DNA of 64,000 nucleotides from positions 4,650,001 to 4,714,000 of the forward strand of contig JAGUCH010000003.1 in NCBI GenBank assembly GCA_019096065.1. The letters are read 5' to 3'. The position numbers and the translations under genes are program-made. The stretch is from Paracyclopina nana. Its lineage: Eukaryota > Arthropoda > Copepoda > Cyclopoida > Cyclopettidae. Of the stretch, positions 14,701 to 47,331 are shown piece after piece (positions within the stretch are counted from its first letter, which is position 1; each line of letters opens with the position of its first letter). The notes beneath the pieces were generated by a model. The model did not search any database and was not told where the DNA came from. It saw only the letters and a program-made list of their open reading frames with translations.

Positions 14701-15074
14701 TCATTTGACAAGGTCGATAATGTTTGCAATGCTGAAAAATGCAAAATCAAGATTGCTACTTTGGGGGTTCAGTGTGAGCATTGCAGGTACGTTATTTTTA
14801 ATCTTATCAATTGCCGCAAAAACTTGATTATCAAAAGAAATCTAGGAGGAGATTTTGCATTGGACATGGCTTGCCAGAATCTCATGGGTGTGGAGATGCT
14901 GCGAGAAAAGCTGCTAGACAACAGCTTTCCAAAGATGGAAAGTTATTCCCAGGGTCTGGAAGGCCGAATTTCAAACCTGATCCTGCCAAGAAGGCAGCCC
15001 TTCAAAGAAGGCTTGATAAGAAGCTGGAAGAAATGCAGGAGAGCAGGAGTAAAAAATCTGCAAGCAAGAAGTAA
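11770..15074 (+). CDS. IGHMBP2: IGHMBP2 (SMUBP-2) SF1 RNA/DNA helicase
   Basis: This is an ATP-dependent 5'-3' helicase of the Upf1-like SF1B group linked to ribosomes and tRNA. Exons are 11770-12058, 12111-12297, 12355-12888, 12945-13316, 13380-14118, 14182-14786 and 14846-15074, giving 984 aa (human 993). Visible parts are the amino-terminal stalk/1B region, Walker [10 protein letters not shown] near 229-236, motif II DECSQA near 394, QYRM near 459 split by an intron, and VDGFQGREKEVVILSLVRSN plus LNVAITRAK of domain 2A. An R3H domain (about 744-800) and the AN1 zinc finger (about 884-930; CEHCRRRFCIGHGLPESHGC) follow. It ends 76 bases from the convergent coiled-coil gene. Confidence 0.97.
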
Positions 15075-15150
15075 CCAATGATGTATGGTAATATGTCTTC
15101 TTAAAAAAGCCTTTATTTCTCTCAGAGAAGCGGTGGATTATCAAAATGAT

Positions 15151-21457: not shown

Positions 21458-24327
21458 TTAACTACCTTGAAGAGCTTGAGGGCTGCCTGATGTTGTAGTG
21501 GAGGAAACGGTTGACTCAGAAGTGCTGCGAGCTCGATGTTTCAGGGGAATTAGCTGCTTAGGCGTGACCACAGCTGATGTCCCATTTGACTTGAGAATGA
21601 CTTCAGGTCCTCCACCATAGATGGAGTGAAACAGTCTCCAGATATCATGGGACACTCGGATGAAGTCCGCTGTTGGCCGCAACACGGGCTGCCTATCATT
21701 GAATCGCGTCGTAATAATGGACCGATTATCAATTTGACCAGGAGGATCGCGTTGCCTCCCGAGGACAAAGTGCTCCCACTGCTTGAACCAGGACGAGCTC
21801 AGGCAGTACATTATGGTAGTGTCGGAATCCATGTGGAGAAACTCCGAATGCAATTTTTTGAAGGTTTCAAGCTCGTTTTGCTTCTGCTTGGTCCAAGCCT
21901 CTTGGTCCACCTTACAATGATTGCATTCAAAAAGCCGGCTGCAGGGGGGCCCTCCACCAAACGTGGAATGCAAATAGTTCCAAGCATTCTGCGGAAAGGC
22001 CACGCACAACTCATTGACGAATGCTACCTTGGATGGAATGATACCACCGTGGGAGCACAAAAAATCAGAGTTGTCAATAGGACCTAAGAAGGCACATAAT
22101 TGAATTAAGGGAACATGTTAAAATTATGCCGACATAAAAATTACCTGGCTCGGCGAGGTTCTCAAATTTGTTCAACCATTGGCGACTGATGTAGAAATCA
22201 ACGAGGCTAGTTCGAGTGTCAAGACGAGACTGAACTTCTTCGCGGTGAGGCTCCATTTTTAGATTGTTCTTTCGGTAGAACAAAACGTACGCTTCTGCAT
22301 TCATCACTGTTGCAGGCTCAACTTTTCCCACGAACGAGTCATCATACTCGTACCACTCTTGGTCAGTGTTGTTCAAAGCATATGCTGTGTAGTGGCCTCC
22401 GCCCGCAGTACCATGATGGCAAATGACCCCAATCAAGTCATAGAGGCTCTCGCGAGATATGCAGTCCTTATGCAACCATGGTGACATATCCAGATCCACT
22501 AGTGGAAAGGTCACCTTGTTGCTAATCTTGGAGCTAAATGCAAACTCGTGACGAAACCTTTTCAAATGTATGCAAAGGGTATCTGGCAAAACAGTCACCC
22601 TCGAGTACTTCAGCCCATTTCTCAACTTCTTGCCTGGAAAAGTAAACGTTTGCAAAGGAGACGGTTAATGATTTGAGAGTAATGAAGTTACATTTTTCAC
22701 AGCTGTACATGTTATCGCCCTTCAGCTCATCAGCCGAGAAAAAGTAGGCCAAGCAATCATGCAGGGTGATGTGGGGCCCGTACAGCCACCCTCCAACCCA
22801 TGACCACATCCATGCCAACCATCCACTGTTGCTTTCATTTTGAACTGTTGTCGACGAGGACGAAGAAGAAGCTGTTGAGGGAATGGGCAGCGACAGGTCC
22901 TATAAAAGAACAATCGTTCCTAAGCAAGTTAAACATAGAAAAGAATGAAAAATGCCTTGCCTGGAATGTCTCGACGGTGGTGGAAACTCGGTCACATGAC
23001 AGGCACTGAACTGATGAAACCAGCTTCCCATCAAAAATATCCGAGATGACAGAACGGTATGTCTTAGGCTTACGCTTCGGTTGCCCGCCGAAAGATACTT
23101 TCGAGGGGGACCTTTGGGACGACGCATTTGACGAGGGCAAAGCCTTCAAAAAAGAGGTTGTTGTCGATGGGGATGCAGAGCGGCTGGAGGCAGCATCCGT
23201 GAAATCCAGCTCTCCATCAGACTCTTCGTTCGAGTCGATCATCCCCGGCACCGATCCGACATGCTTCCTCTTCCTTTTCACGACTCTGATTGGTGACTGA
23301 GACTGTGGCTGTGGCTGTGGTTGCGAATGAGCAACTTCCAAGTTACTACTGTTGCTTTCTTCTGACACTCCAGAATCTGCCGTTTCATATTCTTGGTCAT
23401 CTTCTTCTTCTTGCGTGCTGCCACCAGATCCAGTCTCGGAAACCGACTCTAAATGGGTGTCCATGTAGTCAGTGCTGTTGGGGTCGATTTCAAGCATGTG
23501 TTCGGGCTCCATAAGCTCTTCGTGGATTTGGTCCATGAAGCAACGCAGGAATTCCTGAGAGTCTTGCTGGTGATACCCTCTGAACATGGGATGGGCAGCT
23601 TTGAAAGCAAATAGTAGCTTGGATGGAGCAACATAATTCTCATTGTTATCTTTCTTCCTCTGCCACAAATCTTTCAGGAGTATAAGGTAGGATTGGGCCA
23701 AGCTAGGCTTCTCTCTTTGGACCCCATTGAAAACATCAGCTTTGGTCACCAACGTAGAGCAGGTGAGAAAGAAATCCGTTAAAGCTGGCACGTTTGACAA
23801 GCATTGCAACGCTGCGTTCATGTAGCAAGTGTTGCCAAGATTGGAAAGACCCACTAGTCCCCCAGCACTCTTCTGTCGGCCTTCCACGAAAGGGTTGGAA
23901 GATTCGGGATCAGGAGCTTGAGCGAAATACTCAGCCTCTCCGCAACTCCCTTTGTTCTTGTTCAATAAAGACTTCAATTCATGCAGAGTAGGAGTAGTGA
24001 TTTCTTTGTCACAAATGTAACACCAAGCACGAATTGTAGTCAAATTGACCTGAAGTTGAAAAATCTCATTGAAAAGCAAAATGACCACAACAAATGATAA
24101 CGCACCTGAATACAATGAGTAGGGTTATCCTGAAAATGCTTGGTGGAATGATCTTCGCCATTTTCGCTGCAGCCAATTTCGCAGCAGTTAGGGTACAGGC
24201 AAAGCCAGCAATTTTGGCTGGGCTTCTGGCAAGTGCTGCAAGCAGCCGAATCTTGGAGATTTGTCAGCCCTTCGGTGGCGGCATTTCCCGTAGCTTTCGT
24301 GACATGAGGACAAGCTGACAAAGTCAT
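21458..24327 (-). CDS. Ubiquitin carboxyl-terminal hydrolase, USP20/USP33 type
   Basis: This is a C19 deubiquitinase. Exons are 24327-24106, 24049-22961, 22899-22692, 22633-22145 and 22083-21458, giving 877 aa (human USP20 914, USP33 942). Order: a ZnF-UBP finger (1-90; [32 protein letters not shown]), then the catalytic domain split by an acidic/serine insert (about 255-385) as in USP20/33. The nucleophile is C149 in [12 protein letters not shown] and the histidine is near 587 in [11 protein letters not shown]. Two DUSP-like domains follow, each with a WNYLHS-FGGGP or [12 protein letters not shown] motif. The second intron begins with GC (CAG|GCAAGG), a GC-AG intron. The family acts on VHL-linked substrates, beta-arrestin and GPCRs in vertebrates. 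Confidence 0.95.
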
Positions 24328-33800: not shown

Positions 33801-36088
33801 AGTCGGCAGCCGAGTTGGAGTGAGTGCACACGAGGATATTGGTGCCCTCCTGCTTCAGCAAAATTCGGATTGCTTTGGCCAACGTGAATGTTTTTCCAGT
33901 CCCAAAAGGCCCAATGATGAGAATCGGAGGCAGAGACACGGACTCAGAAGTGATAGCCAGGATAGCCTCACGTTGCTTGGGATTGAGTCGAGTGTCCAAG
34001 TCTTCATTCCATTGTTTACCTGGTTGTAGCAATACAAATTAAAGGGTGAACATCGAAACGTCTCTTGTAGCAATTTTACCTGGAGTCCAAGGAATGCTTG
34101 TTTTTTTGGCCAAATTCACGTCAGGATAAACCAGGCTCATGTCTGGAATTCTGTCGATTGCCAAATGCATTTCACAAAGTGGCAGTCGATTAAGCTGAAA
34201 CTGAACTTCAACCTGTAGCTCTTTTCCTTCCGAAAGATTCATGTCTTTGACCAGCTGAGCAGACAGCCTCAGATACAATGACGACTTCCCCGAATCCTCC
34301 ATTCCTGCCACATAAGCAATTCTTTCTCCCCCTGTGCCTTTCCTAGTAATGGGCTTCAGTAGCAGACTTGTGCAATTGTTGGTCAAAATTAGCCGCCCTG
34401 CAGTGGTATCCTCACTCAAAGATCCTTTGAGGCTCATTTTTCCGAAAAGCTCCCCAGGTCGAGCATATTTTGCGGTTGAGCTATTGGCAGAGGATGGCGT
34501 TAATAGGTACTTTGAGATGAGCATCAAAGATGTCTGCACGTTGAACTGCGAAATCTGCTCGAATTGGGCCATTTCCTCGATAAAGAGCAACTCGTGCATT
34601 CGACTGCGGTAGTTTTTCTTCGTAAGAGTAGGCTCAATCACGCTCTTGGACACCTTAAAAGTGGAGGGCTGAGGAGTAGGGTAGGCTTGATACAGAAATA
34701 AGTCCTCCGGATTAGGAACTTGAATGGGAGGTAAGAAATCAAGGATTTGGCAATTGCTTTTGTCCCATCTCTCAGACTGAGCGATCAGAGTATTTTGCAG
34801 CTCACGCAATTTCTTCTCTTCTTCATCATCATCCTCTTCAAGAACTTCTGAGTCGTCAAAAGGTTTGACGTCAATGCTCAAATCTTTGCGCAAGTAGGGA
34901 GTCTTGCCAAAGTCGAAAACCATGGATTGGCGAAACGTTCCGTAGATGGCGGCAAAAAACTGAACACCAATCTTATAGGTCGCACTTTGACAGGGATAAG
35001 AACACTCACTGCGTGACCACTCAGTGGCAGCAGATGGAAAGTTGAGCGTTTTGATGTAGCCTTCGCCATTCTCAAAGCTAACTACTTCTTTAATGAAAAG
35101 TAGGCTGAAATAGTTTGCCACATCTTCTTCGCTCATTTCGCTTAACAGCGTGACGTTCTGCAACATTTCTTTAGCATCTAAATTGAAAGTCCACACGATG
35201 GGCTTTTCAGCTTTTGATGTCAACGTTATTGAGGTAGAGGTATCGCATTCACACGCCACATCTGTGATGGATGTAGCTAAAACGTCGAGAAGGTTGCTGC
35301 TAGCCTGAGTCAGTTTGTCCAGCAAAGCATCTTTGAACGTCCTGTCCAATTTTCTGGCCTTCATTTGTCTGAATTCGAATCTTTCCTTCCATTCGATTAA
35401 TTCCGCTTCTGAATGGGCATTTGGGCAGAGAATAGCTAATTTGCAGCTCCCCCCTTGAGCAGTGGCTTGACAAATTTTGAAGATTGCCTTGCTTGATGGA
35501 AGCTTAGGTGGAGGACGAAATTCCCAAGTCCTCCCTTCATCTAACTTGATAATGCAAAGATGCTCCTCTGACTTGATGTGTTCAGACTTGTCAACGAAAT
35601 TACAGCAACATTGGGGACAAAAGAGGGCCGCGTCGTTTTTTCGATGATTTTTCTTCTCCTTTTTTTCTTTTCTGTTTTGAGCTCTCTTCTCTTTCCTTTT
35701 TGTAGCATTCAAGTTGGGGTGATTTTCTTTGTTGCCATTTGGCAGGTGCTGCTCGTCCAGGGATTTGTTTGCATCCTCAGTCTGCATGCGAAATTTCATG
35801 ACTGATAAGAATTACGAAGAAAATCACGAGAACGATTATCAACATATTTTTCTCAGCCGTTCGCGAACATTAATGTCTCTACTTTTCTCAACTTTGACTG
35901 AATTTGGAGGTGGACATTAAAAATGGGCTACTCACGTTATTGTCAGCAAAGTTAAGCTCATTGATTCCATTGACCGATTCCGCAAGTGCGGGCGGTTTCT
36001 GATCACTTTTTTCCTTTTCTTCTTCATTCTTTGCTTGTTCGGGGTCTAGACTGGCCGCTGCGCCATCATCACACTCGTCGGCCATCAT
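30834..36088 (-). CDS. HELZ: HELZ, CCCH zinc-finger SF1 RNA helicase
   Basis: This is a cytoplasmic Upf1-like RNA helicase that links mRNAs to CCR4-NOT and poly(A)-binding protein. Exons are 36088-35936, 35781-34080, 34019-33576, 33518-32975, 32918-32592, 32532-32392 and 32256-30834, giving 1577 aa (human 1942). Order: a lysine/glutamate-rich amino end, a CCCH finger ([20 protein letters not shown]), a beta-rich domain, Walker A GPFGTGKT near 655, DEAA near 780, then domain 2A with [13 protein letters not shown] and [15 protein letters not shown]2-type motif [12 protein letters not shown] sits near 1069-1080 and a long Pro/Phe/Ser-rich tail follows. Exon 2 is joined at 35781 by phase; a start at 35799 is the alternative. 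Sequence at 36264-36173 looks like a 5' UTR intron. Confidence 0.94.
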
Positions 36089-37058
36089 TCACGACGACGA
36101 AAACGACAAACGAAATCATGAAGCCAAATAAAATCATTCACACTCTACAAGTTCGATTGGTCCTCCAGAATTCTGCAAAAACATAGGGATGATTTTTCGG
36201 AAAATGACAACGTGCAATGAGCAACCGTCGCGATTTGACGGAAAAATAGGAAAAACGCACTTACCACTTCAACAACAGACGTTTCGTCATCAGTGTTTCG
36301 TTCAAACTAGATTCAGCTAGGATTAATTGCTGAAAAAGCCCAATTGCTAGCAGGGAAAATATGCTGAAGTGCACGAATCTGGAAACTCAGCATTACTATA
36401 GTTACTATGATTGTGTGGGCTCATGAGGAAAGGGCAGAACCATTAATGCACAATTCTAATCTAAGCAAGTGAGAATGCTTGAAAAAGAAAAGGACTTTTG
36501 CTACCATAATCTTATGCTCATAGATTAAGATGGCGAAATCATAGCTTTCAATGGTGATAATGACTTACACAAATTTATTATTGTGCCGATTTTCTTACTT
36601 GACTTTTTTGCGCAGTTGTTGCTGTTGAAGCGCAATTATCATGTCAAGGAATCACCGAACCTTAGCTGCAAAAGTCTTAGAAGCTCCAAAAGATTTTGCA
36701 TCACATATAGAGAGTAGGGCTGCTTGATTGTGAGGACATGCTATTTTGCTGTCCCAACGCATTTGATACAATTCAAGTAGACCTGGTATAGTTCCTAACC
36801 GAAACAATCTCTACCACCCATAAATCACATGAAAAATTGAAAGGATAGATAATACCAAACAAATTCTGAAAGCTCATTTTTTGGGGATTCGTATGGAAAT
36901 AAAAAATACCTGGCCTATGGCCTCCCATTGCATAAAATTGTGGAAAACTAGTCCACAAAGAGCATACTCTGGCTTCCCCTACTGAGCAATTGCGTACGTA
37001 GAGATAGAACAATGAATAGTAACTAGCTTTATGTAACTGACTGTCCTGAGTAGTTAGA
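36089..37058. other. HELZ 5' region up to the retrotransposon insertion
   Basis: A likely 5' UTR intron of HELZ spans 36264-36173 on the minus strand (GTAAGTGCG donor, TTTTTGCAG acceptor). The remainder to 37058 holds no supported gene. The target-site copy TTAGA ends it at 37054-37058. Confidence 0.6.
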
Positions 37059-37412
37059 TGTTCAAGCAAGAGGTACTTGTCCTTGGAAAGATCAAATAAA
37101 GTCTAATGAATAAAGGATCTATACTTGTCAAACGTCAATCAGCTGTCAAAACTTGACCAGCGCGGTAAAATCGGTAGTAGAGCGTCACAATCGGTAAAAT
37201 GGGAGCCTTAGCAGGCTAGACTTGATGAAACAAAGGCCAAGATGAAGGCCCCCCTCGTTGGGGAGCAATGGCGGCCTTCAAGGACGAAGAATAGTAGATC
37301 TATCTCGTTCAAAGGTAAAACAGCAAGTGAATATATTCTGACAAAAAGGACGCTAGCTCAGTCAGCTAGCGCCCGCGCAAAATGCAAGGGCAGCACAAAG
37401 TGCTACCAGACA
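37059..37412 (-). repeat. 3' LTR of the BEL-type element
   Basis: 354 bases, matching 44598-44951 at a constant offset of 7539 with no difference seen. In element orientation it begins TGTCTGGTAGCAC and ends GCTTGAACA. Confidence 0.95.
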
Positions 37413-37430
37413 AATCCCCCCTCCGGCCTT
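37413..37430 (-). other. Polypurine tract of the BEL-type element
   Basis: On the minus strand AAGGCCGGAGGGGGGATT directly abuts the 3' LTR, the position of the plus-strand primer in LTR elements. Confidence 0.75.
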
Positions 37431-37507: not shown

Positions 37508-40500
37508 TTACTTCTTGATCAGGGTGAGGGGCACGGCGGCATCGTCGACGGTGCCATCACGTCCAACCGTGACGGCCGTGGCGTAATTGCCCTCAGGCGT
37601 GCGCCTCCACATGAAATAGAGGTTGCTGACCATGCTAACGGTGTAGCAGTTGAATAAGGCGCATGCCGCAAAATCATTCATCAATGTGAGGAACGGCACC
37701 CGCTGATGTTGCCAAGCCTCGTGCCCCAGGGCACCGCAAGATTTGCATCGGGTTTTCATTAAGGGGCAAACCTTCAAGACGTGGTCCTTGCTCCTGCAGC
37801 GGGGGTAGGCACATCTCACTTTCAGGGAGTGGCAGGCCGGCTTTCTAAATTGAGGCAGCGCCTTCGCATCCTTGTCAGCTGCAGCCGCAGCCGTAGCCAG
37901 CTGCCCATACTTCTCCCGATGGGCGGCAGAGCCACATCTGGAACAATGATGGGGCGTTTCCAGGCTGGCATCAAAATTGTTGACAATGACGTCATGCAGA
38001 GTTAGCTGCGACAAAGGCTTTCCATTTGCCAGCACCAACAAATCAGCCTTCAAGTCTGGCGCTAGCGCAGCCTCGTCGATTGGGATGGCCAAACCCGTCT
38101 TCAATGACTGGTAGACCACCGAAGGGGAGTTCACCGACGTGATGGCCTCGCTTTGGACCAGGAAAGCTGGCGCTGGGGAGACTCCTTCGTTCTTCATCCA
38201 TTCTCCAATGCCTAGCGGCCTGAACATCTCGGGTATTTTGGACGTAGAATTGGCAAACCTTTGTTTGTTTTTGACAATGTCCAAAAGAAGCAGGCAATAC
38301 CTGTTGGCATCGCACTGGTCATCCAAGCCCAGCCTCGTCATCATGGTCGACGCCATCCTGGTCAGCAAAATGGCCGGCAAGGCCACATGGTACCAGGCGT
38401 ACAACATCTGGGCGGCGTGCCAGTCAGCTACTGGTCGCGAGAAATCAGCCTTGACGGCACGCAGCTGAACGAGGCCATCTTCCAGCTTCACATCAGGTGG
38501 GGGTGGACCATCGGGATGTTCCCTTTTCCACTTGTCTTCATGCACGACCACAAACTTCGTTGGCAAGGCCAGCCAATCCGCCACATGGCTAGCGCCGGTT
38601 TTCATCTTCGAATGATGAACTTGAGGCTGAGGGTAGGCCATGGCTGCCAGGTTCATGGCGTCGCAGACAGGATAGCATGGCACACTCATGGCGCCCAGCC
38701 TCCTTTGATCGTCGCTCACCGCAAACTGAACTTTTCTTACCAATGATTCGTTCAATATTTGCTTCACGGCCTCAGGAATTTCCACCCCTCTGATGTTGTC
38801 GGTGGCTTGCCTGGCATTGATTAAGCCACCGTAGTTGACTTTAATCATCAGAGCCACTCCGTTGGGCGCAGCGGCGATGAAGGACGTGAAGGCCTCCGGA
38901 GGCGGCTTCGATTGGCCAAAGTCCGCTCGCTCGTAGGCTGCCGGGGTCCAACTTTCCGTGGCCACGATCATCCACAAGTGCGCCGTGATGGAGGCAAAGA
39001 ACTCATTCATTTGCAGCATCTTTTCCACACGTGGCCATTGACTAGCGTCTTCCAAGGTGATCATATTTCTTCGGCCTTCTTTCATCCTGAGGTCGAATGG
39101 TCCCTGGCCTCCAAGACTATCCACCACAGCTAGCGCCATGGGGTAGTAAGCGATGACGGCGTTCTTGTCCACTCCGTGGTGAAGAGCGTCCTTCTTGTCG
39201 TGCTTGGCAGGCAACTTGGCATCGCAAAAATCCTCGGGGCAATCAACCTCGTCCGTTTTTCCCGCGAGGCGAGCCCGAGCAATGGCACACGGTGGCACAA
39301 CCTCCGAGGTTGCCAGCGGGGCTGGCGGCGAGCTCAACAACGTTTCAGCTGCACCCCCGGCTGGGCTTAGTGCGCAAAACAGACCGGCTGCGGAATAGTC
39401 ACGCAACTTTTCGGCCTCGGAGCTATACGAGCCAAAATCATCAAATTCCAGCAGCCAACCCAGAGCCCTACCTTGATCCCTCAGGGGGAAGGCCTGCAAC
39501 AATGAGCGCAGGGCGGCCGCGTCAGGGCCTTCTTCAGGGTCCGGAGGCTCGCCTGTGCGGTATTGATGACGAAGTCCGGCGAGAAGGCAAAAAATCCGGG
39601 AGCACTTCAAGAAGCCATCGGTTGCAGCCTCTTTCATCTCCTCAGTGAGGTGGACTTGCACGTCATTGCCCATCGATTTGACCAACTCTGCCGCCTGCTT
39701 CTTGAAAAGAACAGGGTGGTTGGCCAGCATAGTCCTCAAAGGATCCTGTCCATCGGAGAGGGCGGCCAGGCGCAGCGCGTCTTTGTAAGGGGCATTGACT
39801 CGCCCCACCAATCGTGAGGTCTCCCGTCGGGGATCATCTGGCAAGGCTGGTCCATAGTCGGCCCTCCAACCCATGATGGCCACATTCCCAGAGGAATATG
39901 CGGTAGCCCGCGTGAAATTGTCCATTTCCAGCAATTCGTCCAGGTAATACGAGTACTCAAACCCCCAGTCGCGAGCAAAACTGGCGGCCCGTTCATCCAG
40001 ATCCTCCTCACGCGTGTTCGAATGGAAGTCTCCAGCGCACGCAAAGATCTCGGGAACCTCGCTATCGGGAGCAAAGTAGGCCCAGTCATGTGGGGCTTGA
40101 TGTTGGTTGGCCTCATGGAGCCTTCTGATTGGATTGGGCCGGCGTGGGTCAAATTCCTCATCCCAAGCAAACTCAGGAACCGGGCTGGCTTGGCGTCTTG
40201 CAGCGGCGACGACCTCCTCCTCGCGCACTTCCCTAGCGGGTTGATTTGAGGCTCGTGCTTGCTGCCGGCTCCTTCGCTCCAGGTTCGTCCGTGCTCGGAA
40301 CGTGGCTCCATCTCCTGGCTCCCTGGTGGCGTCGTCAAACCTCAGCGTCCTAGCGGCTCGTGAGGGTGACTTCCTACGGCGTGATGGTGACCTAGAACGG
40401 GTACGTGAGCGGCGATTCGATCGAGAGGCCTTGCGGCTTCGGGAGCGGGCCTTGCGGTCCTTTTTATACCTGCCATCTGGTCGGGGGCGCCTTTCCTCGG

Positions 40501-40645
40501 AATTGTCGGGAGTAGCCTCCCTTCTCGCCTCCTCCAGGATTGCATCGTCTCGTTTGTCGTCGATCAGAAGCTCGTCGTCGTCTTCCATTTTCGTAGCACT
40601 TGGCACTTTTTCGTCGCTCATCTTGTAGGTTCTTCGACCGGACAT
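37508..40645 (-). CDS. Large gag-like ORF of the BEL-type element, placed 3' of pol
   Basis: The predicted protein is 1045 aa, starting MSGRRTYKMSDEKV at 40645, 128 bases after the integrase stop. Residues 10-70 are acidic then charged. Residues 70-120 form an RS-rich basic tract (RSRSRKASRSNRRSRTRSRS). A long alpha/beta middle (about 150-870) follows, with no motif I recognise. Near the carboxyl end are zinc-knuckle-like clusters: CSRCGSAAH near 898, CX4CX4HX4C (CAYPRCRSKDHVLKVC) near 945, and CX2CX4HX4H (CKSCGALGHEAWQH) near 968. Basic tract plus zinc knuckles suggests a nucleic-acid-binding structural protein, hence gag-like, but an env-position accessory protein or captured gene is possible. 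The frame stays open upstream to 41275, overlapping the integrase ORF; I regard that part as non-coding. Confidence 0.75.
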   Translation of the reverse strand: MSGRRTYKMSDEKVPSATKMEDDDELLIDDKRDDAILEEARREATPDNSEERRPRPDGRYKKDRKARSRSRKASRSNRRSRTRSRSPSRRRKSPSRAARTLRFDDATREPGDGATFRARTNLERRSRQQARASNQPAREVREEEVVAAARRQASPVPEFAWDEEFDPRRPNPIRRLHEANQHQAPHDWAYFAPDSEVPEIFACAGDFHSNTREEDLDERAASFARDWGFEYSYYLDELLEMDNFTRATAYSSGNVAIMGWRADYGPALPDDPRRETSRLVGRVNAPYKDALRLAALSDGQDPLRTMLANHPVLFKKQAAELVKSMGNDVQVHLTEEMKEAATDGFLKCSRIFCLLAGLRHQYRTGEPPDPEEGPDAAALRSLLQAFPLRDQGRALGWLLEFDDFGSYSSEAEKLRDYSAAGLFCALSPAGGAAETLLSSPPAPLATSEVVPPCAIARARLAGKTDEVDCPEDFCDAKLPAKHDKKDALHHGVDKNAVIAYYPMALAVVDSLGGQGPFDLRMKEGRRNMITLEDASQWPRVEKMLQMNEFFASITAHLWMIVATESWTPAAYERADFGQSKPPPEAFTSFIAAAPNGVALMIKVNYGGLINARQATDNIRGVEIPEAVKQILNESLVRKVQFAVSDDQRRLGAMSVPCYPVCDAMNLAAMAYPQPQVHHSKMKTGASHVADWLALPTKFVVVHEDKWKREHPDGPPPPDVKLEDGLVQLRAVKADFSRPVADWHAAQMLYAWYHVALPAILLTRMASTMMTRLGLDDQCDANRYCLLLLDIVKNKQRFANSTSKIPEMFRPLGIGEWMKNEGVSPAPAFLVQSEAITSVNSPSVVYQSLKTGLAIPIDEAALAPDLKADLLVLANGKPLSQLTLHDVIVNNFDASLETPHHCSRCGSAAHREKYGQLATAAAAADKDAKALPQFRKPACHSLKVRCAYPRCRSKDHVLKVCPLMKTRCKSCGALGHEAWQHQRVPFLTLMNDFAACALFNCYTVSMVSNLYFMWRRTPEGNYATAVTVGRDGTVDDAAVPLTLIKK

Positions 40646-40773
40646 GAGTTTTATTTTAATCGCGATCGCTAGCGCTGTATGTTTTTGAGCTAGCGCTAGT
40701 AGTTCTTTTCCTTTTCGGGTTAATGCTCCCTTCTTACAATTGGACTGAGAGCGGAAAGGGCCGAGCAAACTAG

Positions 40774-41613
40774 CTAAACCTGCTTCAGCTGAGTGCGAGA
40801 CCGCGTCATGATTGGTTCGTGCTGTGGTGCGCTTTGTTTTGGTTGGATTGCGCAATTGTTGTCTGCGTTCACGCGATTTCCTTTGTTTTTGTCGACTTTT
40901 GCTTTTCTTAACATTATTTTTTCTCGCAAGGCTTTGTGTTCGGCTACCAAGAAAGGCAATTCGTCTAGCGACTTTTCGACCGGATTTTCGTGAGCATCTT
41001 CCTCCACTAGGTCTACCGGGATTAGCATCGTCAACGGGCGGGTGAGCACATGTTTTTTGCATTTCGCTGGGGCAAACTGCATTTCTACTTTTCTGCACAC
41101 GCCGTCTATTTTGTTTGGCAATAGCTTGACTATTTTCCCGTAATGCCACGCGGCTCGCTTTTGATTTGGCATAGCTACTAGCACCAGCTGGCCTACCTGA
41201 ACACTTTTCGAGAATTCCTGCCATTTTGGCAGCTTGTGAAGTTGCATCAAGTACATTTTTAGCCACTCGTCCCACAGGTCTTGTTGGAACCTCTGTGTCA
41301 GCGCGTATCGGTGCATTAGCGTGGGGATCTCCTCCTTGGCCACCACGGGCAACACTTCCCCGGGTGGCCCAGCCGATAAAAAATGCTGCGGCGTAATCAC
41401 TTCCTCGTCTATCACACCCAGAGGCCTTGAGTTGACTACCGCTTCTGCTTCAATCACTAGCGTGAAAAAGTCATCTGCATGGAAACTGCGCTTTCTATAA
41501 GTCTTAAAGAAGGCCTTTTTCCACAGTTTTATGCTTGCTTCGGAAAGGCCGTTGAAGTGTGGTCCGTACGGGGGCGAGAAAGTCCACGTTTTAACCCCCC
41601 CTCGTTGGCCCAC
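40774..41613 (-). CDS. Integrase carboxyl part and DUF5641-like domain of the BEL-type element (out of frame with pol)
   Basis: This frame continues the integrase after a frameshift near 41595-41601. It has FSPPYGPHFNGLSEASIKLWKK, carrying the glutamate of the DDE triad, then VNSRPLG and PQHFLSAG. The carboxyl region WDEWLKMYL-QL--LPKWQ and VGQLVLVAMPNQ is the DUF5641 domain typical of Pao-type pol. The usable stretch begins at about 41600, where it parts from the other frame, not at the first Met. Confidence 0.85.
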   Translation of the reverse strand: MGQRGGVKTWTFSPPYGPHFNGLSEASIKLWKKAFFKTYRKRSFHADDFFTLVIEAEAVVNSRPLGVIDEEVITPQHFLSAGPPGEVLPVVAKEEIPTLMHRYALTQRFQQDLWDEWLKMYLMQLHKLPKWQEFSKSVQVGQLVLVAMPNQKRAAWHYGKIVKLLPNKIDGVCRKVEMQFAPAKCKKHVLTRPLTMLIPVDLVEEDAHENPVEKSLDELPFLVAEHKALREKIMLRKAKVDKNKGNRVNADNNCAIQPKQSAPQHEPIMTRSRTQLKQV

Positions 41614-44516
41614 TTGCGTAGGGACAACCAGTCAATATCAGCTAGCGCTTCAATGACTTTCGTATGCCTGTCATCTTTCCATAATCTTTTCAGGGCCAAT
41701 TTTATGCCTGGTTGATTATCGCTGCGAATAGATTCTGGTGCTCCCCTTCGATAACAAAATCTCTTCAATCCATTTGTGATTGAGATGGCATCCAAAGCTT
41801 CTACTACCTCGGCGTGAATTGCCTTGGTATGGCGACATATGATGACCATGACAAACCACTGTACTGTGGCCCTACCTCTAACAACGTCGAATGGACCAGC
41901 AAAATCCAGGCTCACATGACGAAAAGGCAGCAAGTCCGTGTAGGGCACCGCATCTCTGGGAATGGGCGCCATGCAAGGGGTGATCGGGACATTTTTAATT
42001 TTTTGACATTCAATGCAGTGCTTTATCAAGTTTTCAGCTGCACTGTCTGCTCCCAGGACCCAATAGGTTGCTTTCAAACGGAGGATTAACTTACGTTTTC
42101 CAGCATGATGGCCGATCCATTGGTGCATTTGCGATGCCAGCGCTGTAGCCAGCGGTCCTTTTGGGATAATCAGTCGTTGTCGATTTAGCCACGGGAATTG
42201 CACCTCCGATAATCTTCCCAAAGTCCGCAATTCCATCTGCTGGCCAATGACAATTCGCAGGCCAGCCAGCTGTGACTTTTTGGGGAGTTTTCCATTAACT
42301 TTTAAATATTCGAGGTCTGGCAAAAACTGATCAATTTGCTCCCGCTTGATTATCATGATTTCAGCGTGTTCTCTGGCCAGTTGCGATAACAGACTTGACT
42401 TCGATGTTTCGATGGCGGATTGGAGTTGGTCAGAAGTCAGTGCTATTTGATCCACGGGCAGCTTGGTCAGGTTCCTCAGCCTGGCCTTGACAAGTAGCCT
42501 TGTCAAGTACAGTCTCACCCACGCTAACACGTTCACTGCCTTGCGAAATGATGAATATTTTGTATAATCAAAAACCTTCGCTTTATTTTTTAGCATCTTC
42601 CAGTCTGCAAAGCAGGGCTCCAAGGTGGCCGTCAACGGGGTGCTGCAATCGGTGTCCTCAGCTGTAGCCAGCGAGGCCAACAACACCGACTTGGCCTTTT
42701 CACACGTGACCTCTGGCAGAGATTCTTCGTCTTTGACTGGAGGCAACCATTTCGGGAATTGATCCTTTGGTCCCGCTGCCCAAGCCGGACCAGTAAACCA
42801 TAGCGGATTGGCAAGGAGTTCTCCTGGGGTCTGGAGGCGCGTGGGCAAATCGGCTGGGTTCTGCTTTCCTGGCACGTGTGCCCAGGTGTGATCTTTGGAT
42901 CGACGGTGGATCTCGCTGACTCTGTTTCCTACGAATGTCTTCCAGGTACGTCCAGGTTTCATGATCCATGCCAGCACGCATTGAGAATCCGTGAAAAAGT
43001 AGATTTGATTAATTGACGTATTAGCTAATAGAATTTTATCTTTTAGGCGGACTGAATTGGTCGCTCCCATCAGCTCCAAATCCGGGATGCTTCGCCTCTC
43101 ATTTAGTGGGGCCAGTTGACGTTTGCAAGCCAGTAAGTGCACTTCCACGTGTATGTCTGAGTATTCCACCCTTACGTAGGCAGTGACTGCATAGGCGAGC
43201 TCACTCGTGTCTGAAAACATGATTAGATCCACCGTAGCCGGTGATCTGCGGATTGCTCTGGGAAAAGTGAACTCGGTGATTTGTTGCATTTGGGCGATGG
43301 CTTCTCTCCATTTTTTCAGGACTCGCTCTAAATCGGGATCAATTATTTCATCTAGCGATGTATCCCAGTCGAGGTTATGCACAGTCCTTAAGGCTTGCAC
43401 CTGCTGCTGCACAATTTTTAGGATCAGGGTGATGGGCTCGAGTAGCCCTAGCGGGTCATAGATCTTAGCCTGAGCCCCCGCCAACTTTCGCATCGTGGTG
43501 GGAGGCGTCATGTAAGGGGAAAAATCGGGTGGCAGAAACGTTAGCACGTCTCTTGACAAGTCAATACACATTCCCAATGCTTTTATTTTTTGATCACATT
43601 CATCAGCCAAAACATGCACAGGACTTACGTGTTCGGTGTCAAGCCCTTCGAGTACTGATGGGTGGCTAGACTGCCATTTTCTCATGAATAGCTTCGCTGG
43701 CTCGGTCATCTCCATGCATTCCTTGACCACCAACTTGGCCTCAGCCTCGGTCTCAACCGCGTGCGGGATATCGTCCATGTAAGCGTCTTGCTTGAAAGCT
43801 TGCGTAGCAACTGTTTGATGCCTCTGCCTTGTTGCCTCCTGCATAGCTGCTAGCGAGGCTAAGATGGCCGCACGGTCCACTGTTGCGGGAGCCGTTTCAG
43901 TGGCAGTGGTTGGAACAGGATCAGAATTAGACTCAGCCATTGTAGGTGGTTGGTATCTCCGTGGTGCAGGGGTCTTCAAGGCTGCTGGGGTCTGAAATTC
44001 GTCTGACTGCGAATCGTCCAGCGGGCTGGCGTCAGGTGAAGCGAAAGTAACCTTTTGCGTTGGAGCGCCGTGTGATGAAAATGGCCTCGGCAAATTTGGC
44101 AGGCTTGAAGTAAAGAGGTTAGTAGACTCGAAACATGAAGGTCTTACTAGAGGCTGCGCTGATTGCGTAGCCGCAATGGTGTGTGGAGTTCGCTCGGCTA
44201 CTGAATCCTCGAGCACAGTCTGCATATGAACATCCCGTTGAATTGTCTCATCCAGTTCTTGCGGCTCATCAATCTCAGTGGCGGCAGTTTCGTCTTGAAT
44301 GACTACCAGCCAAGATTCATTTGATTCCTCTGAATCTGGTTGATTTGGAGGATCATCAGATGCAGGCATTGGCCTAGCGGCTTCAGCCTGGACTTGCTGC
44401 TCAATTTCTTCGTCCGTGGGAGGTGGCAGACCCAATCTGCGTCTGCTTCTCCTAATGTCGCGTTTGGGTGGCGTTGGAGTAGTGGAGGACTTCTTCCTCT
44501 TCTTTTTGTTTGACAT
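41529..44516 (-). CDS. Pol ORF of the BEL-type element, reverse transcriptase internally deleted
   Basis: 995 codons. Residues 1-235 are a lysine-rich start followed by acidic, proline-rich low complexity with no gag or protease motif visible. The sequence then passes directly to the RT active-site box DAYMDDIPHAV (Y246), without the RT fingers/palm that should precede it. The rest is typical Pao: YDPLGLLEPI, RNase H (MFSDTSELAYAV, TDSQCVLAWI, HVPGKQNPADLPTR), the integrase HHCC finger (HHAGKRKLILRLKATYW, HCIECQ) and the core aspartates in SLDFAGP and RSDNQPG. The frame is lost at a run of seven G (minus strand) near 41595-41601. This copy should not make an active reverse transcriptase. Confidence 0.88.
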   Translation of the reverse strand: MSNKKKRKKSSTTPTPPKRDIRRSRRRLGLPPPTDEEIEQQVQAEAARPMPASDDPPNQPDSEESNESWLVVIQDETAATEIDEPQELDETIQRDVHMQTVLEDSVAERTPHTIAATQSAQPLVRPSCFESTNLFTSSLPNLPRPFSSHGAPTQKVTFASPDASPLDDSQSDEFQTPAALKTPAPRRYQPPTMAESNSDPVPTTATETAPATVDRAAILASLAAMQEATRQRHQTVATQAFKQDAYMDDIPHAVETEAEAKLVVKECMEMTEPAKLFMRKWQSSHPSVLEGLDTEHVSPVHVLADECDQKIKALGMCIDLSRDVLTFLPPDFSPYMTPPTTMRKLAGAQAKIYDPLGLLEPITLILKIVQQQVQALRTVHNLDWDTSLDEIIDPDLERVLKKWREAIAQMQQITEFTFPRAIRRSPATVDLIMFSDTSELAYAVTAYVRVEYSDIHVEVHLLACKRQLAPLNERRSIPDLELMGATNSVRLKDKILLANTSINQIYFFTDSQCVLAWIMKPGRTWKTFVGNRVSEIHRRSKDHTWAHVPGKQNPADLPTRLQTPGELLANPLWFTGPAWAAGPKDQFPKWLPPVKDEESLPEVTCEKAKSVLLASLATAEDTDCSTPLTATLEPCFADWKMLKNKAKVFDYTKYSSFRKAVNVLAWVRLYLTRLLVKARLRNLTKLPVDQIALTSDQLQSAIETSKSSLLSQLAREHAEIMIIKREQIDQFLPDLEYLKVNGKLPKKSQLAGLRIVIGQQMELRTLGRLSEVQFPWLNRQRLIIPKGPLATALASQMHQWIGHHAGKRKLILRLKATYWVLGADSAAENLIKHCIECQKIKNVPITPCMAPIPRDAVPYTDLLPFRHVSLDFAGPFDVVRGRATVQWFVMVIICRHTKAIHAEVVEALDAISITNGLKRFCYRRGAPESIRSDNQPGIKLALKRLWKDDRHTKVIEALADIDWLSLRKWANEGGLKRGLSRPRTDHTSTAFPKQA

Positions 44517-44576
44517 TTACCTCCCTTGCCAAGTTTGAAGTCCCAGGTTCGGTCTCTTAGCAGAGGTTGGCACCAA

Positions 44577-44594
44577 TCCCGGGTCGCGGCACCA
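44577..44594 (-). other. Primer-binding site of the BEL-type element
   Basis: TGGTGCCGCGACCCGGGA starts three bases after the 5' LTR end on the minus strand. It begins with TGG, as expected for pairing with a tRNA CCA end. I do not assign the tRNA. Confidence 0.7.
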
Positions 44595-44597
44595 TTT

Positions 44598-44951
44598 TGT
44601 TCAAGCAAGAGGTACTTGTCCTTGGAAAGATCAAATAAAGTCTAATGAATAAAGGATCTATACTTGTCAAACGTCAATCAGCTGTCAAAACTTGACCAGC
44701 GCGGTAAAATCGGTAGTAGAGCGTCACAATCGGTAAAATGGGAGCCTTAGCAGGCTAGACTTGATGAAACAAAGGCCAAGATGAAGGCCCCCCTCGTTGG
44801 GGAGCAATGGCGGCCTTCAAGGACGAAGAATAGTAGATCTATCTCGTTCAAAGGTAAAACAGCAAGTGAATATATTCTGACAAAAAGGACGCTAGCTCAG
44901 TCAGCTAGCGCCCGCGCAAAATGCAAGGGCAGCACAAAGTGCTACCAGACA
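44598..44951 (-). repeat. 5' LTR of the BEL-type element
   Basis: Identical by eye to 37059-37412. It is followed outward by the TTAGA target copy at 44952-44956. Identity of the two LTRs implies a recent insertion. Confidence 0.95.
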
Positions 44952-45058
44952 TTAGATGATATATTTTTAATATGAATTACTTATTGCTTCAATAAGCATT
45001 TATTCAATCTACTTGCGCCTAGTTAATTTGCTTTCAGTTCAAATCTAGTGCAGTGCAC

Positions 45059-47331
45059 TTAAACATCTATAGGCACTGCATCAGCTTTTCTGGGATTTTT
45101 GGAGGGCCTTTGCATCGCTTTGAGCTCATCAAGCTCATCATCGATAGCCCTAAATTGCCATCCCCAAGAAGCATTGTACAAGAATGGTCTGTGATCAAAT
45201 CTGTTGTCATCTGGACTGTAAGTTTCAGCATGGTAAGATGGCGTTAGTACAGTCATCTTGTGCCTGTTGATTGAGTAGAATCTGAAGAAAAGCTTCACTT
45301 TCTGAGCCACCTCCTCTGGGCTCAAGGATCCATCATTAAGAGTTGACCACTTGTGCAGCAACTTGCAAAACATTGAATATGGCCCACATTTCGACTGAGA
45401 TCTGAGCTTCCCATAAACACTTAATTCATCATAAGACATGCCTAAACAATATAAAAAATACTTAGTTTACTATATCAAAATATAATTCATCTTACCCATG
45501 TCTTCCTCATCACTTTGCACAATTTGCCCCCCTGAGAGTGGTTCGAGCTCAGCAGTTGGCTTTGCTATCAAAATTTCACAAAGGGAACTAAGATCAAATT
45601 TCTTAGCTGCATAAGCCAAAAAGCTTTTAAGATCAGTCTTCGAAATGCCTCCTATGGGATTGACATCTGCAGATGAGCAATCATATTTAGTCATATATCC
45701 TCTAAGAGCTTCATCCACATTTGCTGATCCCAAGACCAAAAGCCCACCAGGCCTATTTCTTGCCCATAAGACAAGCTGAGCAAAGAGATAGGCAATAACC
45801 ATCCTGGATCTTGCTTGGACATTTTGTAGGGCAACATTCTCCCTGACAGTGCCTCCATGCGCAGCAAAAATGGGCTTTTTGCCCTGACAGGAGTCAGCAA
45901 AAATGTCAATGAATGCATCCACAGCTTTATCAATTTTGATGGCTAAATGATAGCTCCCAATTTGATTTCCAAGCATTGCAGCTCTGTTATTAGTTTCAGA
46001 GGAGCTGTTCTTTGTGCCCATATAGACTGTGACAAAGAGTCTACTGCAAAGCTCCTTTGGATCGATTGGAGTGTATTTGGGGTCAGCCACAACTCTTCTG
46101 ACATCCGAAAGAGCCTTGGAGTTTCCCTGCCTAATGGATTCCACAACCATATTGCACATTGAGAAAACAATTGTAGCAGTGCTTGAAGAATCCAGACCTC
46201 CAGACAGAGGCAACAAGAATCCTCCCTGCCCACTTCTTCTCAAGTAATCCCATAACCAACAAGCTGGCCCTTGGGCAATCTCCTCTTCAGGACTGTTATA
46301 CTTCCAATCAATGATACTGCTAGTGGGCAAACCTACATCTTGATGGTCCGATAGTGCAAAGCAAGTGACATCAATCCTCGGATAGGCGGGAGCGTGTGAG
46401 GCTCTCAAATTTCTGCTTCGTATGGCGTTTCTGTAAGATCTGATCTCTTCCAAGTCCATAGTGGCAGTTGCCACCTCTACTTCCTCTATGCCAAATTGTT
46501 CGGTCCGGCCAACAATGAATCCATTCAGTGCCAAACACGAGCACCCATTAAAGTAAACCCGTTCACCATCACATCCTCTCAAATTGGAGAAAAGGTAAAT
46601 GCCACCACACTTGGCAGTAGCATCTCTGATGAGATTGACTGACACATAAGCCTTCCTTAACTCCATGTAAGAACCAGATGAGTTGACGATGATTTCAACT
46701 CCATCAAGACTCATGTCAATGTGAGTGCTTTTTGGGTTCCACAACTCTTCGCAAATCTCATAGCCAATGACAGTGTCTTGTAAGGCTAAGACAGCATCAC
46801 CGAAAGGCACTTTGTCTTGACCAGTGACCCTCTGTATGATTCTAGGCAAGTAAAAGTCTTCAGTACTCCTTTTCTTGGTCCATGCAGTGAACCATCTAGT
46901 TTCTCTGTAGTTGCCATCATCACAATTAGCCAATTTTGGACGGACTAAGAGAATTTTTTTGTTCAAAAACACAACCCTGCAGTTATAGGTGACATTTTTG
47001 TGCATGACAGGCATGCCAACATCAATCTACAGGCAGAATCAGTCAATTAATCCTAATTTCCATGCATTGCTAGGGTGCTTACCAAGATGTTTTGACACCA
47101 TTCATGCTCCAAAAGAGACCTCAAAACTTGCCAAGAGTGAAGTAAAGTGTCGGACTCATAGAAGTGGTCTTGACAGTTGTACCCAGTGATTTCTAATTCA
47201 GGGCCAGACCGGTATTTGGCTCCAGCCTTCTTAGCCAAGTGAATGCTGGCCAAAATCCTTTCCAGGTTGCCATCAAAATCCAAAGCCCACTGATTCAGTG
47301 TACTGACAGCCAAAGTAACTTTTCGGCCCAT
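45059..47331 (-). CDS. NADSYN1: Glutamine-dependent NAD+ synthetase
   Basis: The enzyme makes NAD from nicotinic acid adenine dinucleotide, ATP and glutamine, the last step of the Preiss-Handler and de novo pathways. Exons are 47331-47083, 47026-45496 and 45441-45059, giving 720 aa (human 706). The amino half is a carbon-nitrogen hydrolase (glutaminase) domain with the nucleophile cysteine near 172 in GYEICEELW. The carboxyl half is the synthetase with P-loop [12 protein letters not shown] near 355 and [16 protein letters not shown]. Both active sites look intact. The stop is 107 bases from the retrotransposon, which therefore lies in or just beyond the 3' UTR. Confidence 0.97.

What the first reader, a model, noticed from the sequence alone, without database searches (positions are those of the whole stretch)
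37508..40645. A 1045-aa zinc-knuckle ORF lies downstream of pol in a BEL/Pao-type element
BEL/Pao elements usually encode gag then pol, with an optional env-like ORF third. Here pol comes first and the third ORF looks gag-like: an RS-rich basic tract and carboxyl zinc-knuckle clusters (CX4CX4HX4C and CX2CX4HX4H). No gag motifs are visible before pol. Either the element has a reversed gene order, or it carries an unusually large nucleic-acid-binding protein in the env position. The middle 700 residues match nothing I recognise.
Basis: partly seen in the sequence, partly recalled or inferred. Interest (0 to 1): 0.75.

Follow-up and report, generated by a model that had tools for sequence, protein, structure and literature searches.

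The report
BEL retroelement's conserved zinc-knuckle third gene
This animal jumping gene is a shortened copy of a normal BEL/Pao element; the odd large protein at its end is not a misplaced gag but a conserved extra gene of unknown origin, probably RNA-binding, that sits where an envelope gene would be.

Summary
The ORF, its RS tract and its zinc knuckles are real (minus strand; three knuckles, not two). The 'pol first' order is not: this copy has lost about 3.76 kb (Gag capsid/nucleocapsid, protease, front of RT). The 8 relatives found by DNA in the same 92-Mb animal genome all keep that Gag-protease-RT stretch upstream, then the same third ORF. ORF3 was found at 41 loci (this one included): 40 lie behind BEL pol domains on the same strand, the 41st behind a pol remnant. 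Of 11 other BEL elements fetched (7 of them among the 41), 10 carry it, down to about 21-25% identity. ORF3 and pol diverge in step; in the one pair with unsaturated sites ORF3 is as constrained as pol. No match in Pfam, PDB sequences, a 5.8-billion-protein set or two contig collections; no detectable homology to the elements' own Gag outside the knuckles; no membrane anchor in this protein. Most likely it is an intracellular RNA-handling accessory protein in the env position, working like C. elegans Cer1's CERV (RNA export) or as a second nucleocapsid-like protein; the mechanism is inferred. Its frame stays open back across pol's stop, mostly in the -1 phase. A new variant of a known kind.

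The parts
44952..44956 (.). 5' copy of the TCTAA target-site duplication
44598..44951 (-). 5' LTR, 354 bp, TG...CA
   Evidence: identical to the 3' LTR, 0 of 354 mismatches
44578..44594 (-). primer-binding-site-like stretch TGGTGCCGCGACCCGGG; the tRNA was not identified
   Evidence: present in the leaders of 9 of 9 copies
43803..44516 (-). Gag N-terminal remnant of ORF1, about 238 residues
   Evidence: 50-90% identical to the ORF1 N-termini of 8 relatives
43798..43803 (-). deletion junction; about 3.76 kb of Gag CA/NC, protease and front of RT missing; only a few bases shared at the ends
   Evidence: 1 of 10 DNA hits (this copy) spans the junction
41529..43800 (-). RT from YMDD on, RNase H/A17 region, integrase zinc domain, in one frame with the Gag remnant
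40774..41631 (-). integrase C-terminal part and DUF5641, in another frame (frameshift between about 41529 and 41631)
37508..40645 (-). ORF3, 1045 aa from the first ATG; its open frame continues upstream to 41449, overlapping pol in the -1 phase
40352..40456 (-). RS-rich basic tract, about residues 64-98
39224..39289 (-). invariant Cys453, Cys469, Cys474 of the central region (possible extra zinc site)
   Evidence: invariant in 10 of 10
37832..37945 (-). zinc knuckle 1, CX2CX4H...C with a long insertion
   Evidence: canonical CX2CX4HX4C in L043, L047, L048
37766..37813 (-). zinc knuckle 2, CX4CX4HX4C
37706..37747 (-). zinc knuckle 3, CX2CX4HX4H
37415..37424 (-). 3' polypurine tract GGAGGGGGGA
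   Evidence: GGAGGGGGG (GAAGGGGGG in L021) before the 3' LTR of all 11 copies printed
37059..37412 (-). 3' LTR, 354 bp
37054..37058 (.). 3' copy of the TCTAA target-site duplication

Best explanation
The locus is a recent, internally deleted insertion of a BEL/Pao LTR element whose normal order is LTR - gag-PR-RT-RH-IN (one frame of about 2,500 aa) - ORF3 - LTR. ORF3 is an old third gene of a large BEL clade of this genome, inherited together with pol. It most likely makes an intracellular RNA-handling protein: the RS-rich N-terminus would engage nuclear RNA-processing or export factors, and the three C-terminal zinc knuckles would bind element RNA, so that the protein acts for the unspliced genomic RNA (nuclear export or protection, like Cer1 CERV or retroviral Rev) rather than in membrane fusion. 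The frame is open back over pol's stop, mainly in the -1 phase, so translation probably begins upstream of the first ATG, from a spliced message with its acceptor near the end of pol, or by frameshift or reinitiation. Shown: anatomy, deletion, gene order, conservation, selection (one pair), lack of matches in the collections searched. Inferred: RNA binding, nuclear role, way of expression. My likelihoods: anatomy and order about 0.95; intracellular nucleic-acid-binding accessory protein about 0.6; export-type role about 0.35.
For: Order: Gag N-terminus, pol, then ORF3 in 8 of 8 DNA relatives; the stretch missing from the window copy (Gag CA/NC, protease, front of RT) is found in place in 10 of 10 relatives, the 8 plus L035/36 and L037/38, L009 being the query; Pfam on L009 gives DUF1758, RVT_1, A17, H2C2 and DUF5641, with DUF1759 weak, E 0.012. 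Distribution: 41 ORF3 loci, 38 with A17 2.1-3.2 kb upstream on the same strand, 39 with DUF5641 within 1.4 kb, 40 with at least one; the remaining locus lies behind a pol remnant; 32 of 41 have an open frame of 1000 codons or more. Co-inheritance: Spearman 0.88 between pol and ORF3 identities of 11 elements, 0 of 9999 permutations as high. Selection: for L011/L013, dN/dS 0.042 (ORF3) and 0.037 (pol); all other pairs have saturated or near-saturated synonymous sites. Twelve knuckle ligands invariant in 10 of 10; the top profile hit in the PDB, not significant, is a retroviral nucleocapsid (2ihx, E 0.94). No 19-residue window above 1.6 in P0001. Upstream frame: 2 ORF3-frame stops in the 120 nt after pol's stop over 18 elements, against 23.5 in shuffles (0 of 500 as few); -1 phase in 14 of 18. 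Precedent: CERV, a spliced env-position protein required for gRNA export (PMC10309623, abstract and passages).
Against: No fold, no RNA data, no significant homology to any RNA-binding protein beyond weak knuckle matches (zf-CCHC in 2 of 10 members, best E 0.064; zf-CCHC_6 in 1, E 0.021). The RS tract is weaker in divergent members (RS/SR 6 and 7 in P0009 and P0010 against 21 in P0001). Some homologues have hydrophobic windows: P0009 reaches 2.09 with 6 windows above 1.6, P0013 has 3, P0010 2, P0005 and P0012 1 each, so a membrane contact is not excluded for the whole family. No conserved splice acceptor was seen by eye before ORF3, and the donor-like AG|GTAAATG of the leader lies in a wholly conserved stretch, so splicing is not demonstrated. 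The upstream-frame pattern fails in 4 of 18: L019 and L040 in the +1 phase, L047 and L048 in phase with pol but behind its stop; L040 and L047 each also have one stop. One BEL element (L046) shows no ORF3 within the 4 kb fetched.
Confidence: 0.6

Rival explanations
1. ORF3 is a second Gag: a structural protein with its own capsid-like core and nucleocapsid, derived from an ancient Gag of a BEL-like element and kept as a minor particle component.
For: Three C-terminal knuckles as in the elements' own Gag, the last of both being CX2CX4HX4H; the only hhalign match of the diverse profile puts ORF3 knuckles 2-3 on Gag knuckles 2-3 in register.
Against: That match has probability 0.1%; nothing outside the knuckles aligns with confidence. 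DUF1759 is not found in ORF3. No fold was obtained. An ordinary Gag is already present upstream.
Confidence: 0.2
2. ORF3 replaced env with a protein taken from an unrelated RNA virus (for example a nucleoprotein or capsid), as other BEL lineages took glycoproteins.
For: BEL elements have acquired env-position genes from other viruses (Atlas, PMC9094657, passages). The central ~700 residues are a long conserved region of unknown kind.
Against: No match in IMG/VR contigs by two short peptide patterns per scan, in the 5.8-billion-protein set or in Pfam. These searches reach only limited distances.
Confidence: 0.15
3. ORF3 is a host gene captured by the element.
For: RS tracts and CCHC knuckles also occur in host RNA-binding proteins (general knowledge; non-significant DDX-15, SRSF1 and DHX8 matches to the RS stretch only).
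Against: All 41 ORF3 loci found in this genome lie behind BEL pol sequence, so no free-standing host copy was seen; but only 44 of 271 candidates were scored and introns would hide a host gene. No Pfam relative.
Confidence: 0.1
4. ORF3 is a divergent envelope glycoprotein.
For: It sits in the env position and its frame overlaps the end of pol, as env often does; P0009 has a hydrophobic window of 2.09.
Against: No window above 1.6 in P0001, P0006, P0008, P0011 or P0014, so no conserved anchor; RS tract and three zinc knuckles. No dedicated signal-peptide predictor was run.
Confidence: 0.04
5. The element truly has a pol-first, gag-last order.
For: In this copy no capsid, nucleocapsid or protease family precedes RT.
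Against: The Gag-protease-RT stretch is in front in 10 of 10 relatives, and a junction seen only in this copy explains its order.
Confidence: 0.01

Closest known systems
BEL/Pao elements (Belpaoviridae, Semotivirus; e.g. Ascaris Tas, Atlas virus)
   Same: LTRs, PBS-like stretch, PPT, gag-PR-RT-RH-IN order and A17/DUF1758/DUF5641 domains in the intact relatives; a third gene after pol.
   Different: The third gene is an RS/zinc-knuckle protein, not a recognisable glycoprotein; the C4 relative is about 11.7 kb (from the coordinates), above the 4.2-10 kb quoted in PMC8742986 (whole text).
Cer1 CERV of C. elegans (Ty3/Gypsy; PMC10309623, abstract and passages)
   Same: Env-position ORF, not Env-like, without obvious homologues outside its own group; a nuclear regulator of genomic-RNA export, the function proposed here.
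   Different: 517 aa, a different retroelement class, no zinc knuckles reported in the passages I saw (a possible C4 finger); sequence relation not tested here.
Bdelloid rotifer Vesta/Juno ORF3s (PMC5408684, abstract and section 3.3)
   Same: Non-envelope ORF3 in the env position of LTR elements.
   Different: Those are GDSL esterases or DEDDy exonucleases; ORF3 here has no enzyme family match in Pfam.
Retroviral/BEL Gag nucleocapsid
   Same: CCHC-type knuckles in tandem; last knuckle CX2CX4HX4H as in these elements' own Gag.
   Different: No capsid homology detected; the elements also have an ordinary Gag upstream.
Phlebovirus-like Env of hookworm Atlas virus (PMC9094657, passages)
   Same: Third coding region of BEL elements after pol.
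   Different: A class II fusion glycoprotein; ORF3 of the window has no membrane-like segment by hydropathy.

Membership tests
BEL/Pao (Belpaoviridae) | Pao-type RT/RNase H region (Peptidase_A17) and DUF5641 after integrase | tested here: met
   A17 7.8e-35 and DUF5641 6.5e-18 in the window copy; DUF1758, RVT_1 and others in L009
BEL/Pao (Belpaoviridae) | gag-PR-RT-RH-IN order | tested here: met
   Met in 10 of 10 relatives examined; lost by deletion in the window copy
BEL/Pao (Belpaoviridae) | LTRs of 0.2-1.2 kb flanking the element, with target duplication | tested here: met
   354 bp, 0 mismatches, TCTAA; LTR matches of 317-352 bp in 10 of 10 relatives
BEL/Pao (Belpaoviridae) | genome 4.2-10 kb | tested here: not met
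   Window copy 7.9 kb, but the C4 relative is about 11.7 kb; a descriptive range, not a diagnostic feature
BEL/Pao (Belpaoviridae) | PBS complementary to tRNA-Arg or tRNA-Gly | not tested
   PBS-like stretch seen; tRNA not identified
Retroviral or BEL Env | transmembrane anchor | tested here: not met
   Hydropathy scan only: no window above 1.6 in P0001; 5 of the 10 sequences scanned have 1-6 such windows, best 2.09 in P0009
Retroviral or BEL Env | signal peptide | not tested
   no predictor was run; the true N-terminus is uncertain
Gag | tandem zinc knuckles | tested here: met
   Three knuckles, ligands invariant in 10 of 10; last ligand absent in L048
Gag | capsid homology or fold | tested here: inconclusive
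   Profile comparison 0.1%; AlphaFold mean pLDDT 35 and 34
Rev/CERV-type RNA export factor | needed for export of unspliced genomic RNA | not testable with these tools
   needs experiments
Rev/CERV-type RNA export factor | made from a spliced message | tested here: inconclusive
   Donor-like site in 9 of 9 leaders, no conserved acceptor seen, frame open upstream of the first ATG

The most novel reading that the evidence does not exclude
ORF3 founds an unreported family of retroelement regulators: a ~1,050-1,120-aa RS/three-knuckle protein that, in a whole clade of BEL elements, took the env position and escorts or packages genomic RNA, translated as a -1-phase overlapping frame at the end of pol; internally deleted copies such as this one could keep supplying it while being mobilised by others.
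Probability: 0.3. Interest if true: 0.75.

Novelty: new variant of a known kind. Interest (0 to 1): 0.5.

Why it matters
The env slot of BEL elements is known for captured glycoproteins. Here a broad set of elements in one genome keeps a large knuckle-bearing protein without a conserved membrane anchor there, under selection, next to an ordinary Gag. If it is an RNA-export or packaging factor, it would be a further case, beside Cer1 CERV, of an LTR retrotransposon with its own RNA regulator, in a different retroelement family, and would make the question of how such elements move unspliced RNA testable. It also warns that gene order read from one deleted copy misleads.

Tried and rejected
Rejected: reversed gene order. 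Displaced or duplicated Gag as a demonstrated relation: no confident homology. Env: no conserved membrane segment. Host gene: not seen, not excluded.

Led nowhere: ORF3 against Pfam, PDB sequences, the 5.8-billion-protein set, viral contigs and bacterial/archaeal contigs. No positive control with pol was run in the protein set, so its silence may reflect poor cover of animals. Two single-sequence AlphaFold runs (whole ORF3, residues 725-1000) gave mean pLDDT 35 and 34; no fold search was made on them. Host identity: exact nematode SL1 absent; Rfam SL1 and nematode cuticle-collagen searches silent, but nothing rang in their controls either; I name no phylum. A depletion of ATGs in the pol-ORF3 spacer, suggested, did not survive shuffles (15 against 19.3; 66 of 500 as low). 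A conserved slippery site or splice acceptor was not found by eye. In print: 8 literature searches were answered; in their listings I saw no report of such an ORF3, but I opened only six papers (PMC3118150, PMC8742986, PMC8220671, PMC9094657, PMC10309623, PMC5408684), most of them in passages, and most subscription papers are not held.

Dropped or limited counts: one search used 57 of the 150 A17 rows and 41 of the 150 DUF5641 rows, typed in with the ORF3 places in view; it therefore shows what lies before ORF3, not what share of BEL elements has ORF3. One search scored 44 of 271 candidates. One search used 13 elements with a readable ORF1-ORF3 boundary; one search added 5 (L017, L037, L040, L047, L048), three of them unfavourable; L021 (ORF3 N-terminus lost) and L046 (no ORF3) were left out. 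One search used 5 ORF3 and 6 pol sequences with open frames; one search used 11 elements.
Full report
What is there. On the minus strand of the window lies one LTR element from 44951 to 37059 (7.9 kb): two 354-bp LTRs with no mismatch, a TCTAA duplication, a PBS-like stretch after the 5' LTR and a GGAGGGGGGA polypurine tract before the 3' LTR. Pfam finds Peptidase_A17, Integrase_H2C2 and DUF5641, so it is BEL/Pao; ORF3 matches no family.

Why pol seems to come first. A DNA search found this copy and 8 relatives in the same genome (92 Mb, 10 contigs, unnamed). Read around each of them, 8 of 8 have the ORF1 N-terminus, then RT-RH-IN, then ORF3. Between the first two, a stretch missing from the window copy is present in all 8, and in L035/36 and L037/38 as well: against the L009 Gag-protease-RT translation the other nine match at 46-87% identity (in L017 the match ends about a hundred residues early). 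In L009 this stretch encodes a weak DUF1759 match, three Gag knuckles, the DUF1758 protease and the front of RT. A probe over the junction at about 43.80 kb hit 10 places; only the window copy matched across it, while the C4 copy matched on either side 3758 bases apart. So the window copy is a deletion derivative; ORF1 fuses a Gag remnant to RT from YMDD on, in frame. The integrase frameshift is a second lesion. Identical LTRs mean a recent insertion; whether the deletion came before or after insertion cannot be told.

ORF3 is a standard third gene. The protein search found 52 matches from 44 of 271 candidates scored, which merge into 41 loci, the window included; 38 have A17 2.1-3.2 kb upstream on the same strand, 39 have DUF5641 upstream within 1.4 kb, 40 have one or the other, and 32 have an open frame of at least 1000 codons. 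The odd one, on C8, follows a 75-aa pol remnant 93% identical to that of L042. Of 11 BEL elements fetched besides the first 8, 10 carry ORF3: L035 and L037, L039-L044 (pol 30-42% identical to the window copy, ORF3 25-32% over the main part), L047 and L048 (L048 about 21% over 328 residues); L046 does not within 4 kb. Seven of the 11 are also among the 41 loci. A17 itself rings at least 150 times in the genome (150 of 243 candidates scored), so BEL elements are abundant.

Selection and descent. L011 and L013 differ at ORF3 by dN 0.0035 and dS 0.085 (ratio 0.042), pol 0.037; between all other pairs synonymous sites are saturated or nearly so while dN is 0.15-0.33 in ORF3. Across 11 elements pol and ORF3 identities rise and fall together (Spearman 0.88; 0 of 9999 permutations). 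ORF3 has therefore travelled with pol, and in the one pair that can be measured it is about as constrained as pol.

Anatomy of ORF3. An RS-rich N-terminus of variable length, a conserved core of about 700 residues with invariant Cys453, Cys469, Cys474 and Cys661, and at the C-terminus three knuckles whose twelve ligands are invariant in 10 of 10 aligned homologues; the very divergent L048 lacks the last ligand. There is no window above 1.6 on the hydropathy scale in P0001, though 5 of the 10 sequences scanned have between 1 and 6 such windows, best 2.09 in P0009. Profiles of 5 or 10 homologues find nothing significant in the PDB; the top hit of the larger one (E 0.94) is a retroviral nucleocapsid over two knuckles. 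Profile comparison with the elements' own Gag gives 0.1%, though the only aligned piece sets knuckles 2-3 in register. AlphaFold without an alignment failed twice.

Expression. In 13 elements with a readable boundary the ORF3 frame has no stop between pol's stop and the first in-frame ATG (0 in 708 codons, against 27 in 707 and 26 in 708 for the other frames). With 5 more elements and a fixed stretch of 120 nt, 2 stops were seen against 23.5 in shuffles (0 of 500), and ORF3 lies in the -1 phase to pol in 14 of 18. Many of these elements are related, but a subset of 7 diverged ones still has 1 stop against 10.5 (0 of 500). The frame therefore behaves as coding back to pol's end. A spliced message, a -1 frameshift or reinitiation would each fit; I saw neither a conserved acceptor nor a slippery site. 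The 1045-aa figure is thus a minimum.

How it probably works. In CERV of C. elegans Cer1 an env-position protein from a spliced mRNA is required for export of the unspliced genomic RNA (PMC10309623, abstract and passages); bdelloid LTR elements carry other non-envelope ORF3s (PMC5408684, abstract and section 3.3). With an RS tract and knuckles and no conserved membrane anchor, an RNA-handling role is the best guess: export or protection first, a second Gag-like structural protein next, a captured viral nucleoprotein third. None of these is shown.

Verdict. What remains is a conserved RS/zinc-knuckle third gene without known homologues in the collections searched, in a large BEL clade: a new variant of a known kind, interest 0.5.

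Noticed in passing
between pol stop and ORF3 in L011, L013, L015, L017, L019, L023, L035 (window counterpart about 40720-40740): An otherwise poorly conserved spacer keeps a G6 tract in 7 of 9 aligned copies (GAGGGGGGC in 6, AAGGGGGGC in L017; degenerate in the window copy and L009), much like the 3' polypurine tract: perhaps a central PPT or a fossil of an older 3' end.
   Followed up: partly
window about 44510-44525, leader: The ORF1 ATG sits in AG|GTAAATG, a donor-like sequence, in 9 of 9 copies; the whole leader is conserved, so the weight is low.
   Followed up: partly
window about 41529-41631: By coordinates, the integrase frameshift of the window copy lies near where relatives have a G run (GAGGGGGGGG or GAGGGGGGAG) in integrase; the two were not aligned.
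   Followed up: no
G000:C8:2080546-2082924 and L045: A second deletion derivative that keeps ORF3 behind a 75-aa pol remnant.
   Followed up: partly
L046:796-2289: Behind a 1430-aa BEL pol frame lies a 498-aa ORF without detected ORF3 similarity.
   Followed up: no
G000, genome-wide: At least 150 Peptidase_A17 matches, many in stop-free frames of 2000-3100 aa: an animal genome of 92 Mb rich in open BEL elements.
   Followed up: no
window 45470-47014, 34039-35799, 22835-24115, 13381-15081: Host genes around the element: NAD synthase with CN hydrolase, a weak MOV10-like match (below Pfam's cut-off), a ubiquitin hydrolase, an AAA_12/R3H protein.
   Followed up: no
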